Shown: one piece after another, positions 12,734 to 25,023 of the stretch
Layout of the letters: every line of letters starts with the position of its first letter
Position numbering within the stretch: the first letter of the stretch is position 1
Assembly: GCF_038618305.1 (NCBI RefSeq)
Contig: NZ_CP152017.1
Span: 2,705,501 to 2,769,500, forward strand
Length of the DNA: 64,000 bases
Reading direction: 5' to 3'
Source: Sporosarcina sp. FSL K6-2383
GTDB taxonomy: Bacteria; Bacillota; Bacilli; Bacillales_A; Planococcaceae
Program-made: the position numbers and the translations under genes
Notes under the pieces: generated by a model
Told to the model about the DNA's origin: nothing
What the model saw: the letters and a program-made list of their open reading frames with translations, nothing else
Database searches by the model: none

Positions 12734-13003
12734 CAATTACACCTCGGCGTAATTGCGTACAGATTTTGAATCGATCTTGCTCGATTCAAAATCTGTGACA
12801 TCCGCAGGCCAACAGGATGTTGGTTAGCAACCGTTGCCGCAGGACGCGGTGAACTTAGGTTGCCTTCCATTCTTCATTCAGCGGGAGTTTGAACACCCAC
12901 TTAATAGGAAAACAAAAACGCGTTCTTCTCACTATCTAGAGAGGTGGGAGTCTCCTTTAGCTGACGCTTCACTTTCAGTACAAAAGCATTTGCTGAATGA
13001 AGA
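12734..13003 (+). repeat. Intergenic modular repeat copy B (fullest copy)
   Basis: Modules in order: hairpin H1 CAATTAC..GTAATTG (12734-12755); hairpin H2, a perfect 16-bp stem (12759-12774 with 12781-12796); the linker GACATCCGC; the AGGAT/AGGAC three-helix module (12809-12863); then an inverted-repeat-bounded segment with the perfect 12-base arms TCTTCATTCAGC (12871-12882) and GCTGAATGAAGA (12992-13003). It fills the gap between the SASP 2 upstream region and the SASP 3 terminator. A 78-codon reading frame crosses it but lacks a start site and crosses the hairpins, so I read the segment as non-coding. Confidence 0.85.
12809..12863 (+). other. Covarying three-helix module with AGGA loops (in copy B)
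   Basis: CCAAC-AGGAT-GTTGG hairpin, a TTA spacer, then the outer stem GCAACC/GGTTGC enclosing GTTG, the inner hairpin CCGC-AGGAC-GCGG, and TGAACTTA. The homologous module in copy D (24880-24934) keeps loops and joining segments but changes both sides of each stem in step. That pattern argues for a selected RNA or single-stranded DNA fold. No known RNA family recognised by me. Confidence 0.75.
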
Positions 13004-13010
13004 TAAAAGC

Positions 13011-13047
13011 GAAAAGCTGCTCCGGAAAAATTCCGAAACAGCTTTTC
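13011..13047 (-). terminator. Terminator after third SASP gene
   Basis: GAAAAGCTGC..TCCGGA / TCCGAA..CAGCTTTTC composite stem, 10 bases past the SASP 3 stop on the minus strand. Confidence 0.75.
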
Positions 13048-13056
13048 ATATTGTAA

Positions 13057-13269
13057 TTATTGTTGGTTAGTGCCACCCATTTGTTGTTGCGCCTGACGTA
13101 CTAATCGCTTCGTAATTTCTCCGCCGACGGATCCGTTGGCACGCGATGTAGCATCTGGGCCCATCTGTACACCAAATTCGTTTGCAATTTCATTTTTCAT
13201 TTGATCAAGTGCTTGTCTTACACCTGGAACGACAAGCTGATTTGAATTACCGCTGTTGTTACTAGCCAT
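13057..13269 (-). CDS. sspA: Alpha/beta-type small acid-soluble spore protein (SASP 3)
   Basis: A 70-residue third paralogue, opening [16 protein letters not shown] and sharing the EIANEFG protease-site block and the [18 protein letters not shown]-binding end. The start is ATG 13269 with AAGGAGGTGG at the right distance; seven further in-frame codons upstream overlap that site and are rejected. Separated from SASP 2 by the large repeat copy B. Expected to be made only in the forespore and degraded by GPR at germination. Confidence 0.95.
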
Positions 13270-13291
13270 GATTACCACCTCCTTGTGCATG

Positions 13292-13321
13292 TAGAATGTG
13301 CCGCGTACGCAAATTCATGCA
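13292..13321 (-). promoter_or_regulatory. Sigma-G-type promoter of SASP 3
   Basis: On the minus strand, TGCATG, 17 bases, CATTCTA, the same geometry as the other two SASP promoters. Confidence 0.83.
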
Positions 13322-13350
13322 CAAGGTTTCACTGGTAATTTTTGTATCAC

Positions 13351-22494: not shown

Positions 22495-23307
22495 ATGAGA
22501 CTAATTTCAATCTGTCCAAGTAACACAGAATTACTCGCCTATCTCGGTCTCGTAGATCAACTCGTTGCGGTTGATGATTTTTCGGACTGGCCAGCAAGCA
22601 TAGCAACTCTCCCTCGCCTTGGACCTGATTTATCGATTGATATGGATAAGCTCGAACTGTATGAACCAGATCTTGTGTTTGCGTCACTAAGTGTACCCGG
22701 CATGGAGAAAAATGTTGAAGAACTGAAAAAACGCAATATCCCCCATATTATTTTGGATCCACAAAGTTTGAATGATATTGCTGCAGATTTGCTAACCGTT
22801 GGACAAACATGCGGAATTGAAGAGCGAGCTCTCTACATTAAAAAGGAATACCTAGCCTTTATCGACGATATGAAAAAACGTGCGGCAACCGTTGAAACAA
22901 CTCCCTCCCTTTACTGGGAATGGTGGCCGAAACCTGTATTTACGCCCGGGAGAATTAATTGGCTTACTGAGATTAGTTCGATTGCAGGTGGACTCAATGA
23001 ATTCAGTGACGTTGAACTTGCCAGTGTACAGACAGATTGGGAGGATGTTTTAAAGAGAAATCCCGATTACATTCTGCTCGCGTGGGTTGGTGTTCAGACT
23101 AATAAAATGAAAACAGAAGTCGTCCTAAAACGACCGGGCTGGCAACAACTTGCTGCCGTCAAAGAGGGACGTCTAGCTAAAATGGAAGAAGAACTTTACT
23201 GCCGCCCTTCCCCACGCCTTCTTGAAGGTGCCTTGAAATTAGGGAAAATGATTCATCCAGAAGTATATGCAGATTTGAAATTGCCTGACTGGATTACCAA
23301 TGCATAA
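22495..23307 (+). CDS. Cobalamin/siderophore-binding-type protein without signal peptide (BtuF-like)
   Basis: A 270-residue protein with the class III solute-binding fold: an N-terminal lobe starting MRLISICPSNTELLAYLGL and the motif DLVFAS, a linking helix (about 95-140), and a C-terminal lobe with NPDYILLAWVG. Relatives are annotated as cobalamin-binding proteins. Unusually, there is no signal peptide, lipobox or hydrophobic N-terminus, so the product should be cytosolic, and no permease or ATPase gene is nearby. A role in intracellular B12 or corrinoid handling is inference. ATG 22495 follows AATGGAGTG. Confidence 0.75.
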   Translation: MRLISICPSNTELLAYLGLVDQLVAVDDFSDWPASIATLPRLGPDLSIDMDKLELYEPDLVFASLSVPGMEKNVEELKKRNIPHIILDPQSLNDIAADLLTVGQTCGIEERALYIKKEYLAFIDDMKKRAATVETTPSLYWEWWPKPVFTPGRINWLTEISSIAGGLNEFSDVELASVQTDWEDVLKRNPDYILLAWVGVQTNKMKTEVVLKRPGWQQLAAVKEGRLAKMEEELYCRPSPRLLEGALKLGKMIHPEVYADLKLPDWITNA

Positions 23308-23314
23308 AACAGTA

Positions 23315-23352
23315 AAAAGCTATTTTCCTATATCATAAGGAAAATAGCTTTT
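23315..23352 (+). terminator. Terminator after BtuF-like gene
   Basis: AAAAGCTATTTTCCT / AGGAAAATAGCTTTT, 15-bp stem, followed by ATTTTTA. Confidence 0.88.
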
Positions 23353-23359
23353 ATTTTTA

Positions 23360-23512
23360 CAAATGTTGTTTCTAGCTAATATCCAGCGAAGGAGCGACAA
23401 GTGTGAGCCGAAGCAATAAGACTGATAGTGGTTTTCTATCAGGCTAATTGCGAGAGGCCATCACCAAGCGACAAAGCGGTATTGAAGAGCACTCCACTTG
23501 CTAAGCCTATTA
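23360..23512. other. Unassigned non-coding segment 3' of tyrS
   Basis: About 150 bases between two convergent genes, with no reading frame of note. It has a small hairpin (GATAG/CTATC in the middle), GGAGCGACAAGTGTGAGCC, and a run of AGCGACAAAGCGG near the tyrS side. Unlike the modular repeats elsewhere in the window. It could be the 3' UTR of tyrS or a degraded copy of another repeat; I cannot assign it. Confidence 0.4.
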
Positions 23513-24778
23513 TCAAATAAACTTCACCATTTTATAATTTTTCTTCCCGCGGCGGACAATGATAAACGCATCTTCCAAACGATCCGTAGCATCTACTTCA
23601 TAAGCTGTATCCGTCACACGTTCGCCATTCAAAGAAATCGCACCATTCGTCACATCTTCACGTGCTTGACGCTTCGATGGTGACACACCCGATTCAACAA
23701 TGAAATCAACAATGTTCTTGTCTTCTTTTGCCATTTCAAATGAAGGAACATCTTTAAATGCATCCTTCATTTCACTAGCCGTCAACGCCTTTAAATCTCC
23801 ACTAAATAACGCTTTTGAAATACGAATTGCCTGATCCAGTGCATCCTGCCCGTGAATCAATTTTGTCATTTCTTCAGCAAGCGTCAGCTGCGCTTTGCGT
23901 AAATGCGGTTCTTCTTGCACAGATACTTCTAATGCTTCAATTTGCTCGCGCTCCATGAACGTGAAAATTTTCATGTATTTGATAACATCTGCATCAGCTG
24001 TATTAATCCAGAACTGGTAAAACTCATATGCTGACGTTTTCGATGCATCTAGCCACACCGCACCGCCTGCACTTTTCCCGAACTTTGTGCCATCTGCTTT
24101 TGTCACAAGCGGAATCGTAATGCCGAACGCCTTCGCTTCTTCTTCATGTGTTTTACGAATCACTTCAAGACCTGTTGTAATATTTCCCCACTGGTCTGAG
24201 CCACCGATTTGCACACGACAATTATAGTTATTGTAAAGATGGTTAAAGTCGATTCCTTGAATTAACATATATGAGAATTCAGTAAAGGAAATTCCACCTT
24301 CAAGTCGTGAAGCGACATTATCTTTTGCTAGCATGTAATTTACGCCTAATAGTTTTCCATAGTCGCGTAGAAATTCGATGATGCTTAGTGACCCAATCCA
24401 GTCATGATTATTGACCATTTGGGCCCCATTATCCGTCTTAAAATCAAAAATCCGTTCCAACTGCCCTTTAATGCCCTCAACGTTTTTCGCAATTTGCTCC
24501 GTTGTCTGAAGCTGCCTTTCGTCAGAACGCCCCGATGGATCCCCAATCATACCCGTCGCCCCACCAACAAGTAAAATTGGACGATGCCCGTGCATTTGAA
24601 AACGACGCAGTGTTAGCAATGGAACAATATGTCCAATATGCATACTATCTGCTGTAGGGTCAACACCGCAATAGAGTGAGATTTTTTCCTCATTCAATAC
24701 CTTTTCAAGACCTTGCTCATCCGTTTGTTGATACAACAAGCCTCTCCACTTTAAATCTTCCATCAATGCGTTTGTCAT
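23513..24778 (-). CDS. tyrS: Tyrosyl-tRNA synthetase
   Basis: A 421-residue class I aminoacyl-tRNA synthetase charging tRNA-Tyr. HIGH motif as [14 protein letters not shown] counterpart as KFGKS ([11 protein letters not shown]), and a C-terminal S4-like RNA-binding domain (about 355-421, [18 protein letters not shown]). ATG 24778 with AGGAGG nearby. Transcribed from its own promoter through a T-box leader (25024-25262). Repeat copy D lies between the T-box terminator and the ribosome binding site, giving an unusually long segment after the terminator. Confidence 0.98.
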
Positions 24779-24837
24779 TTAAATTCCTCCTAAACATAGT
24801 AAAAAAGCATATTTCTTTAGGTACTGAAACTAACAAT

Positions 24838-25023
24838 CAATTACGCCGAGGCGTAATTGAGTCCAAATTTTGAATTGTGCCCGTAGGATGCGGGTATGCA
24901 GTCGTTGCGACAGGACGTCGCGAACTTAGACTGCCCGCAATTAACTACCCTCAAAATTTGTGACATCCGCCGGAGGCTTAATTTGATTTAGCAGGGAGTT
25001 TAATCTCTGCTAAATCAAATTAA
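24838..25023 (+). repeat. Intergenic modular repeat copy D (inside tyrS leader)
   Basis: H1 is a perfect 10-bp hairpin CAATTACGCC/GGCGTAATTG (24838-24859). The AAATTTTGA..TCAAAATTT arms of H2 are split by the AGGAT/AGGAC module (24880-24934). The linker TGTGACATCCGCCGGAGGCT follows, then a 20-bp hairpin with one mismatch (24978-24997 with 25004-25023) that abuts the T-box terminator. The last hairpin keeps GGGAGTTT in its loop side, as in copies A and B, but is the compact form of the inverted-repeat module. Confidence 0.85.
24880..24934 (+). other. Covarying three-helix module with AGGA loops (in copy D)
   Basis: CCCGT-AGGAT-GCGGG hairpin, a TAT spacer, outer stem GCAGTC/GACTGC, then GTTG, inner hairpin CGAC-AGGAC-GTCG and CGAACTTA. 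Compared with copy B (12809-12863), about seven base pairs are replaced on both sides (one pair becoming a T-G wobble) while loops and joints are unchanged. Its minus-strand complement is what the tyrS transcript would carry. Confidence 0.75.

What the first reader, a model, noticed from the sequence alone, without database searches (positions are those of the whole stretch)
12809..24934. A three-helix module with fixed AGGA loops and compensating stem changes in two repeat copies
Copies at 12809-12863 and 24880-24934 share order, loop sequence (AGGAT, AGGAC) and joints (GTTG, GAACTTA). Their stems differ on both sides in step: CCAAC/GTTGG versus CCCGT/GCGGG, GCAACC/GGTTGC versus GCAGTC/GACTGC, CCGC/GCGG versus CGAC/GTCG. 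About seven pairs are replaced with pairing kept. That is the mark of a selected RNA or single-stranded DNA fold. Hairpin loops showing AGGA resemble CsrA targets or anti-SD decoys, but that is speculation. I know of no named family that matches.
Basis: partly seen in the sequence, partly recalled or inferred. Interest (0 to 1): 0.85.

Follow-up and report, generated by a model that had tools for sequence, protein, structure and literature searches.

The report
Bacillaceae-1 hairpin cassette in mobile repeats
The two matching folded segments are copies of a catalogued "RNA" motif called Bacillaceae-1, which in this Sporosarcina-like genome is a palindromic DNA cassette repeated dozens of times inside small mobile elements and probably not the small regulatory RNA it is filed as.

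Summary
Both copies are Rfam RF01690, Bacillaceae-1 (68.8 and 58.2 bits, cut-off 35), on the strand opposite to the one read. The CsrA idea is also in print for this family (PMC4333381).

Each copy is a three-way-junction cassette inside a 190-270 bp composite of palindromes. The genome holds 68 Bacillaceae-1 matches and 150 copies of the composite's core motif; 37 same-genus genomes hold 0 to 69. Copy 1's whole element (12732-13004) is missing from the syntenic site of a close relative, without visible target duplication. Elsewhere the cassette sits in other palindromes, before 16S rRNA, and inside an RNase P RNA gene.

The compensatory changes lack a clear RNA signature. In 111 copies the three stems hold 23 G.U and 19 A.C cells; T-box RNAs of the same genus, counted the same way, hold 267 and 8. 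A few weakly paired outer positions lean the other way.

Best reading: a non-autonomous mobile palindromic cassette, pairing kept mainly at the DNA level, moved by an unidentified enzyme. A CsrA sponge is unlikely.

The parts
12732..13004 (-). Composite palindromic element 1, whole; lies between two tandem ORFs whose products I recall as SASP-like (12403-12609 and 13057-13290, both -)
   Evidence: Syntenic empty site in G014: alignment stops at window 12728 and resumes at 13005, positions 205103 and 205100 of the joined G014 stretch; exact ends set by eye; ORFs; the SASP name is recalled, NCBIfam gave no match
12734..12755 (.). Terminal palindrome CAATTACACC/GGCGTAATTG (element 3' end on the - strand)
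   Evidence: the repeat finder I3, 90% complementary
12759..12796 (.). Central 16-bp stem ACAGATTTTGAATCGA/TCGATTCAAAATCTGT, no Bacillaceae-1 in it in this copy
   Evidence: the repeat finder I1, 100% complementary
12809..12874 (-). Bacillaceae-1 module, copy 1 (three helices, UCCU loops on the - strand, AGGA on the + strand)
12871..13003 (.). Left hairpin TCTTCATTCAGC/GCTGAATGAAGA with 109 nt inside, including a second repeat module near 12953-12980
   Evidence: the repeat finder I2; module pattern hit with 3 mismatches at G000:C1:2718453-2718480 (-)
24836..25023 (-). Composite palindromic element 2, whole; lies between the T-box leader terminator and the start of tyrS
   Evidence: Absent or different at the same site in congeners; tyrS ORF 23513-24778 matches TIGR00234; T-box 25053-25250 RF00230; ends set by eye
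24837..24860 (.). Terminal palindrome TCAATTACGCC/GGCGTAATTGA
   Evidence: the repeat finder I3, 100% complementary
24864..24960 (.). Central stem CAAATTTTGA/TCAAAATTTG enclosing Bacillaceae-1
   Evidence: the repeat finder I5, 77 nt between arms; single-strand DNA fold of 24835-25021 z -9.08
24880..24945 (-). Bacillaceae-1 module, copy 2
   Evidence: Rfam RF01690, 58.2 bits, cut-off 35
24978..25023 (.). Left 20-bp hairpin directly downstream (on -) of the T-box terminator T-run
   Evidence: the repeat finder I1, 95% complementary
30110..30301 (+). Third copy of the composite backbone in the window, without Bacillaceae-1
   Evidence: Core pattern hit 30217-30235, one mismatch; sequence read; ends set by eye

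Best explanation
The module is a copy of Bacillaceae-1 (RF01690), and Bacillaceae-1 is here a palindromic DNA cassette (a three-way junction with two conserved-loop hairpins) carried by non-autonomous mobile palindromic repeats. Shown: high and variable copy number, presence/absence differences between related genomes, nesting in different palindromes and RNA genes, and stem compensation without a clear strand preference. Inferred: in single-stranded DNA (for example on the lagging strand) the repeats fold, and an enzyme encoded elsewhere recognises the folded form and its conserved loops and inserts it at terminator T-runs or at the tips of other hairpins. Where a copy is transcribed, as in the tyrS leader, the same palindromes fold in RNA but are tolerated passengers.
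For: 68 matches in the own genome, 67 over cut-off (150 of 498 candidates scored, so a lower bound); 0 to 69 per genome among 37 same-genus genomes, seven with none (at most 69 scored per genome); 105 of 150 genomes of the order have it. Core backbone pattern: 150 copies against 1 for the reversed control. Of the window and ten further own loci given to a BLAST against 400 kb of G014, the window and two loci aligned over 250 nt; all four Bacillaceae-1 sites in them are absent, reduced or carry other modules in G014. G014 has insertions at window ~37.5 and ~40.2 kb that the own genome lacks; no target duplication seen by eye. Element in the tyrS leader of G033, empty in G032. Cassette seen inside several different palindromes (by eye), before 16S rRNA and in an RNase P RNA. 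Three inner stems: G.U 23, A.C 19 in 111 copies; 27 and 25 in 133. Thirty tyrS T-box leaders 267 and 8; the 111 copies by the same method 23 and 18; one-sided to both-sided changes 152:146 against 17:323. Composite palindromes: 59 left hairpins G.U 12, A.C 18; 89 central stems 4 and 10, out of 92 composites, arms chosen by near-complementarity.
Against: No transposase identified: the own genome's only Y1_Tnp matches are two overlapping pieces of one broken gene; Y1_Tnp is absent from Bacillaceae-1-rich G031, G015 and G016, present in rich G002, G009, G014 and G021, and present in all seven genomes of the genus without the motif. The strand test is not fully clean. With slid partners as baseline, A.C is commoner than G.U by chance (1456 to 893, summed), so 23 to 19 is a slight G.U excess on the Rfam strand (p 0.037). 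With the four outer pairs included (6-70, 7-69, 8-68, 11-49) the totals are G.U 28, A.C 91, which would favour the reverse strand if those pairs were real; their A.C counts are near or below what independent columns give, though 11-49 and 6-70 show some association. Only one genome pair was compared at length, and gain and loss are not separated (site 2651860 in G014 may be a degraded remnant). Only 8 of 25 measurable elements abut a run of four or more T. Conserved loops could also mean a function in RNA. Copies are related, so cells are not independent; T-box controls are orthologues, these copies mostly paralogues.
Confidence: 0.55

Rival explanations
1. Bacillaceae-1 acts as RNA: a structured module that works in the transcripts it is part of (3'-end protection, processing, attenuation) or as a small RNA, and has been amplified by hitch-hiking on repeats.
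For: Strong loop and junction conservation (CTAAG, xTCCT, AAC); location in likely transcribed RNAs: tyrS leader, within BsrG-family matches (L075, L089), RNase P RNA, before 16S. A slight G.U excess over baseline in the inner stems on the Rfam strand (p 0.037), or, if the outer pairs are real, a wobble excess on the reverse strand; the two point to opposite strands. Rfam types it as sRNA; Weinberg 2010 lists it as an RNA (table passage).
Against: G.U to A.C is 23:18 where T-box RNAs of the same genus give 267:8 by the same count. Seven of 37 congeners have no match and the element is absent from orthologous sites.
Confidence: 0.26
2. The matched stem changes come from quasi-palindrome correction: template switching at replication copies one arm into the other, so arms stay complementary without selection for any fold.
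For: Both-sided changes far outnumber one-sided ones (323 to 17); near-perfect pairing also in left hairpins and central stems; window element 3 has the inside of its left hairpin inverted relative to element 1 (by eye), which recombination between arms would give.
Against: Loops and the internal loop are conserved across genera and host contexts, which correction alone does not explain. Stems are only 5-7 bp.
Confidence: 0.13
3. The reverse-complement strand is a CsrA-binding RNA that titrates CsrA through two AGGA hairpin loops (Gardner and Eldai proposal, PMC4333381).
For: AGGA in hairpin loops on the + strand in both window copies; csrA in 53 of 61 relatives, the own genome included; first loop keeps GGA in 124 of 133 copies; the outer-pair A.C excess would be G.U on this strand.
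Against: GGA in both loops in 82 of 133 copies; the second loop lacks it in 45 of 133 (part of that set was found by a pattern that fixes parts of the loops; in the 111-copy set 67 keep it, counted). No bias for that strand in the three stems. Seven congeners with csrA have no copy, and G013 (99% complete) has a strong copy without a csrA match. In the tyrS leader the AGGA strand is antisense to tyrS.
Confidence: 0.06

Closest known systems
Rfam RF01690 Bacillaceae-1 (Weinberg 2010, PMC2864571, table passage seen)
   Same: Sequence, secondary structure and loops match at 68.8 and 58.2 bits.
   Different: Filed as an sRNA; here it is a cassette within a repeated composite that differs between related genomes, without a clear RNA wobble signature. 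I saw no mention of that in the passages read.
REP/BIME repeats and RAYT-mobilised palindromes (PMC3733652, passages seen)
   Same: Short intergenic palindromes in many copies, often downstream of genes, sub-families with alternative complementary stems.
   Different: That paper gives REPs as 20-40 bp with a GTAG or CGTC tag at one end; here a 67-nt three-helix cassette in a 190-270 bp composite. Its authors read frequent GT pairs in GTAG REPs as a sign of RNA function; here G.U is hardly commoner than A.C in the stems. Y1_Tnp is missing from several copy-rich genomes.
MITEs, including bcr1-bcr18 of the Bacillus cereus group (PMC6542083, passages seen)
   Same: 100-400 bp, up to 130 copies of bcr1, copy number varies between strains.
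   Different: bcr mobility is tied to a repeated TTTAT motif; no target duplication was seen here. Sequences were not compared.
IS200/IS605 family (TnpA/TnpB)
   Same: No target duplication and hairpin ends, as I recall for that family; one internal module resembles by eye the left end of the own genome's TnpB element (L068).
   Different: Only one broken Y1 transposase and one TnpB match in the genome.
Palindromic insertions in stable RNA genes (recalled: Rickettsia palindromic elements, rRNA intervening sequences)
   Same: Hairpins inserted at tips of peripheral helices; here in an RNase P RNA.
   Different: Recalled, not tested; sequence families unrelated as far as I know. One paper search on this gave nothing relevant (listing).

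Membership tests
Rfam RF01690 Bacillaceae-1 | Covariance-model score above gathering (35 bits) | tested here: met
   68.8 and 58.2 bits
Rfam RF01690 Bacillaceae-1 | Two hairpins with UCCU loops and the CUAAG/AAC internal loop | tested here: met
   Alignments: loops GUCCU and AUCCU in both window copies
Small regulatory RNA | Pairing kept at RNA level (G.U clearly above A.C on one strand) | tested here: not met
   Stems 23:19 and 27:25; T-box control 267:8. Caveats: slight excess over the slid baseline (p 0.037); outer pairs lean the other way
Small regulatory RNA | Own transcript | not testable with these tools
   No expression data
CsrA-binding sRNA | GGA kept in both hairpin loops of the AGGA strand | tested here: not met
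   82 of 133 copies; met in the two window copies
CsrA-binding sRNA | Occurs only with csrA | tested here: inconclusive
   csrA in 53 of 61; G013 has a strong copy without a csrA match, G026 (75% complete) and G005 (copy below cut-off) likewise; five non-genus genomes lack both
Non-autonomous mobile element (MITE-like) | Many dispersed copies, non-coding, variable between relatives | tested here: met
Non-autonomous mobile element (MITE-like) | Terminal inverted repeats with target-site duplication | tested here: not met
   Ends are two different palindromes and no duplication at the sites read
REP/RAYT system | Dedicated Y1 transposase in the genome | tested here: not met
   Broken single Y1 gene in own genome; none in copy-rich G031, G015, G016, though present in G002, G009, G014, G021
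bcr repeats | Sequence match to bcr1-bcr18 | not tested
   Sequences not at hand

The most novel reading that the evidence does not exclude
A new class of hairpin-targeting mobile cassette: a 67-nt three-way junction that inserts, without target duplication, into the tips of other palindromes and of structured RNA genes (RNase P RNA, BsrG-type RNAs, 16S leader), and is itself a target for a 66-nt second cassette in its own loop; it is mobilised as folded single-stranded DNA, or through RNA, by an enzyme not yet known.
Probability: 0.2. Interest if true: 0.85.

Novelty: new variant of a known kind. Interest (0 to 1): 0.55.

Why it matters
Annotation resources count Bacillaceae-1 hits as RNA (for example 8 newly annotated structures in BSGatlas, PMC8208703, passage; listed among sRNA families in PMC9029176, passage). 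If it is a mobile DNA palindrome, those counts are repeats, not regulators, and the CsrA-sponge proposal loses its ground. The G.U-versus-A.C count used here, with a slid-partner baseline, can be applied to other orphan "structured RNA" families to tell RNA-level from DNA-level folds. The insertions in an RNase P RNA gene and next to 16S rRNA would show a palindromic element living inside essential RNA genes.

Tried and rejected
CsrA sponge: tested by loop content, strand asymmetry and csrA co-occurrence; not supported. Y1/IS200-type transposase as current driver: no consistent presence in copy-rich genomes, and present in all seven motif-free congeners. Replication-strand bias: 42 of 68 Bacillaceae-1 hits and 56 of 100 listed backbone copies are co-directional with replication if the origin is at base 1, which was assumed, not checked; no clear bias. 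A test that flanks form a closing stem gave 48 of 129 copies with z below -2 (simple shuffles of 60-nt flanks; copies related), so it holds for a part only. Insertion strictly after terminators: 8 of 25 by the T-run rule (5 more of the 30 loci dropped because no left arm was found). A target-derived left hairpin was considered from the G033 copy and dropped because the arms look mostly like one sequence family (by eye). 5S rRNA: L249 reads by eye like a 5S gene with two inserts, but cmscan did not confirm it, so it is not claimed. tRNA control: the ARAGORN brackets gave only standard pairs, so it informs on the G.U share alone (37 of 558). Copies dropped: the 111-copy set keeps only ungapped 73-nt matches (133 of 168), made distinct; the enlarged set of 133 distinct 67-mers adds pattern hits. 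Pairs dropped from the main strand count: 6-70, 7-69, 8-68 and 11-49; with them the totals are G.U 28, A.C 91.

Literature: nothing on Bacillaceae-1 as a repeat was found among the 13 papers holding the term (passages read in five: PMC2864571, PMC4333381, PMC5764928, PMC8208703, PMC9029176; the rest seen as a listing) or the 5 holding RF01690 (listing). Searches for Sporosarcina with interspersed repeat and for MITE with structured-RNA terms found no paper; one search was seen as a listing, with passages of PMC3733652 read. Only the open-licence library was searched.
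Full report
WHAT WAS CHECKED. The two segments exist as described. On the + strand each has the order hairpin with AGGAT loop, GCAxxC arm, GTTG joint, hairpin with AGGAC loop, GAACTTA joint, GxxTGC arm. Between them six pairs change on both sides and one on one side (read). In a 34-sequence alignment, 14 of 20 pairs show double changes and no shuffle reaches the covariation score; one of five measures, the number of further pair types, is not above the shuffles. The fold is real.

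NAME. An Rfam scan of the window gives RF01690, Bacillaceae-1, on the minus strand at 12809-12874 (68.8 bits) and 24880-24945 (58.2 bits); the gathering score is 35. Gardner and Eldai noted that the reverse complement of this family matches a CsrA-binding motif and that the discoverers were unsure of the strand (PMC4333381, passage read; author names recalled). Weinberg 2010 lists the motif as RNA, not cis-regulatory (PMC2864571, table passage). So both the family and the CsrA thought are in print.

COPY NUMBER. The own genome (one contig, 3.67 Mb) has 68 matches, 67 over cut-off; only 150 of 498 candidates were scored. Among 37 same-genus genomes, the own one included, counts run from 0 (seven genomes) to 69, the number scored (with stricter filters). 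In the order, 105 of 150 genomes have a match, with at most 31 scored per genome. Of 57 named stretches holding an exact pattern, 27 are titled Sporosarcina; others are Oceanobacillus, Virgibacillus, Cytobacillus, Psychrobacillus, Lentibacillus and a few more. The host genus is most likely Sporosarcina (inference).

ANATOMY. The module is a part. Reading the minus strand, each window element runs: left hairpin (TTTATCTTCATTCAGC type, often with inserted matter), GCCTCCGGCGGATGTCA or part of it, a central stem (CAGATTTTGAA/TTCAAAATCTG type), then a terminal palindrome CAATTACGCC/GGCGTAATTG type ending in ATTGAT. Bacillaceae-1 sits inside the central stem in element 2 and between the left hairpin and the central stem in element 1. 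The core pattern occurs 150 times in the genome with up to 3 mismatches (reversed-pattern control 1). Of the 100 places listed, 36 have a Bacillaceae-1 match within 250 bp, 34 of them in the same orientation. A second module (33 places, including six tandem 66-bp units) is inserted in the loop of the Bacillaceae-1 middle hairpin in at least five copies. A third (22 places) lies inside left hairpins where I looked. As single-stranded DNA the two elements fold far better than shuffles (12732-13001 z -5.98, 24835-25021 z -9.08).

TURNOVER. A 400-kb stretch of the close relative G014 is largely collinear with the window. Element 1 is cleanly missing there: own GCTTTT | ATCTTCATTCAGC...GTAATTGA | TAGTG, G014 GCTTTTTAGTATG (minus strand), with no target duplication by eye. 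At the tyrS leader G014 keeps only the left hairpin and part of the terminal palindrome; G033 carries a short element without Bacillaceae-1 at the same spot where its congener G032 is empty. Of ten further own loci given to the BLAST, two aligned over 250 nt; one is absent or degraded and one carries other modules in G014. So four of four compared sites differ; eight loci could not be compared. G014 has insertions at window positions about 37.5 kb and 40.2 kb that the own genome lacks. Direction (gain or loss) is not proven for each site.

OTHER HOMES. In other genera of the family the cassette lies in quite different long palindromes (by eye). Elsewhere it abuts the 16S rRNA in three of three copies of G049, lies within the RNase P class A RNA of G054 in a variable helix tip between model positions 136 and 137 (I name this helix P12 from memory), and in L075 and L089, both of the window's genus, lies within a BsrG-family match. 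In three of three tRNA-adjacent copies that I tested (L251, L257, L266) a 23-nt near-copy of the upstream tRNA 3' end follows the cassette; a fourth, L273, lies between tRNA genes and was not tested.

DNA OR RNA. If pairing is kept in an RNA, G.U on that strand should be tolerated and A.C should not. In 111 distinct copies the three stems (pairs 12-17/43-48, 25-29/35-39, 53-57/63-67) hold 1687 Watson-Crick cells, 23 G.U, 19 A.C and 47 others; in an enlarged set of 133, 2020, 27, 25 and 56. Tyrosyl T-box leaders of 30 same-genus genomes, aligned and folded by consensus, give 267 G.U to 8 A.C, with 152 one-sided and 146 both-sided changed cells; the same procedure on the 111 copies gives 23 to 18, and 17 one-sided to 323 both-sided. 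The consensus method favours G.U over A.C, so it leans against the conclusion. The composite's other palindromes show G.U 12, A.C 18 (59 left hairpins) and 4 and 10 (89 central stems), of 92 composites.

LIMITS OF THAT TEST. Slid partners, a chance baseline, give A.C more often than G.U in these copies (1456 to 893, summed), so 23 to 19 is a slight G.U excess on the Rfam strand (p 0.037); for T-box the baseline is 889 A.C to 1437 G.U and the excess is overwhelming (p 7e-45). Pairs at the outer ends (6-70, 7-69, 8-68, 11-49) were left out of the main count; with them the totals become G.U 28, A.C 91. On the reverse strand these A.C cells would read as G.U. Their A.C counts (35, 11 and 26 at 6-70, 7-69 and 11-49) are near or below what independent columns predict (41.1, 10.5 and 37.7), so they mostly reflect weak pairing; but 6-70 and 11-49 do show some association (Fisher p 0.005 and 3e-11). 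I read the whole as lacking the RNA signature that T-boxes show, with a faint and contradictory strand hint. DNA-level pairing, through a selected single-stranded fold or arm-to-arm correction at replication, fits better. Conserved loops across unrelated contexts argue that something reads the folded cassette.

CSRA. GGA in both loops (on the reverse strand) is kept in 82 of 133 copies. csrA is found in 53 of 61 relatives, including all seven congeners without the motif; G013 has a strong motif and no csrA match. This does not exclude binding of single copies.

DRIVER. No enzyme is identified. Y1 transposases are absent from several copy-rich genomes (G031, G015, G016), present in others (G002, G009, G014, G021) and present in all seven motif-free congeners; the own copy is broken. 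One TnpB match is present.

VERDICT. What is new, as far as my searches show, is that this "sRNA" behaves as a palindromic mobile cassette whose compensatory changes lack a clear RNA strand signature.

Noticed in passing
window 30110-30301: A third backbone element without Bacillaceae-1; by eye the inside of its left hairpin is inverted relative to element 1, as recombination between the hairpin arms would give.
   Followed up: partly
L262:1239-1723 (-): An RNase P class A RNA gene with a Bacillaceae-1 cassette in a variable helix tip (G054).
   Followed up: yes
L249:1430-1700 (-): Sequence that reads by eye like a 5S rRNA gene carrying two inserts, one of them Bacillaceae-1; not confirmed by Rfam scan.
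   Followed up: partly
L251, L257, L266: Bacillaceae-1 next to tRNA genes, with a 23-nt near-copy of the tRNA 3' end on its far side: a direct repeat around a short stretch that holds the cassette.
   Followed up: partly
L336 to L339, G000:C1:1368832-1369184: Six tandem 66-bp units of the second module that also inserts in the Bacillaceae-1 loop.
   Followed up: no
L328 (Cytobacillus gottheilii, NZ_LT800494.1): Twelve pattern matches, the eight listed ones at regular 312-bp spacing: a tandem array of Bacillaceae-1-bearing repeats.
   Followed up: no
L301 (record titled Arthrobacter beigongshangensis): A composite with the Sporosarcina-type backbone in a record titled as an actinobacterium: contamination or transfer, not tested.
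   Followed up: no
L003:1501-1567 and L089: Bacillaceae-1 just upstream of what reads by eye as a small hydrophobic toxin-like ORF; L089 and L075 match the BsrG type I toxin family across the cassette.
   Followed up: partly
window 57510-57725 (-): A second T-box leader in the window (RF00230, 132.6 bits).
   Followed up: no
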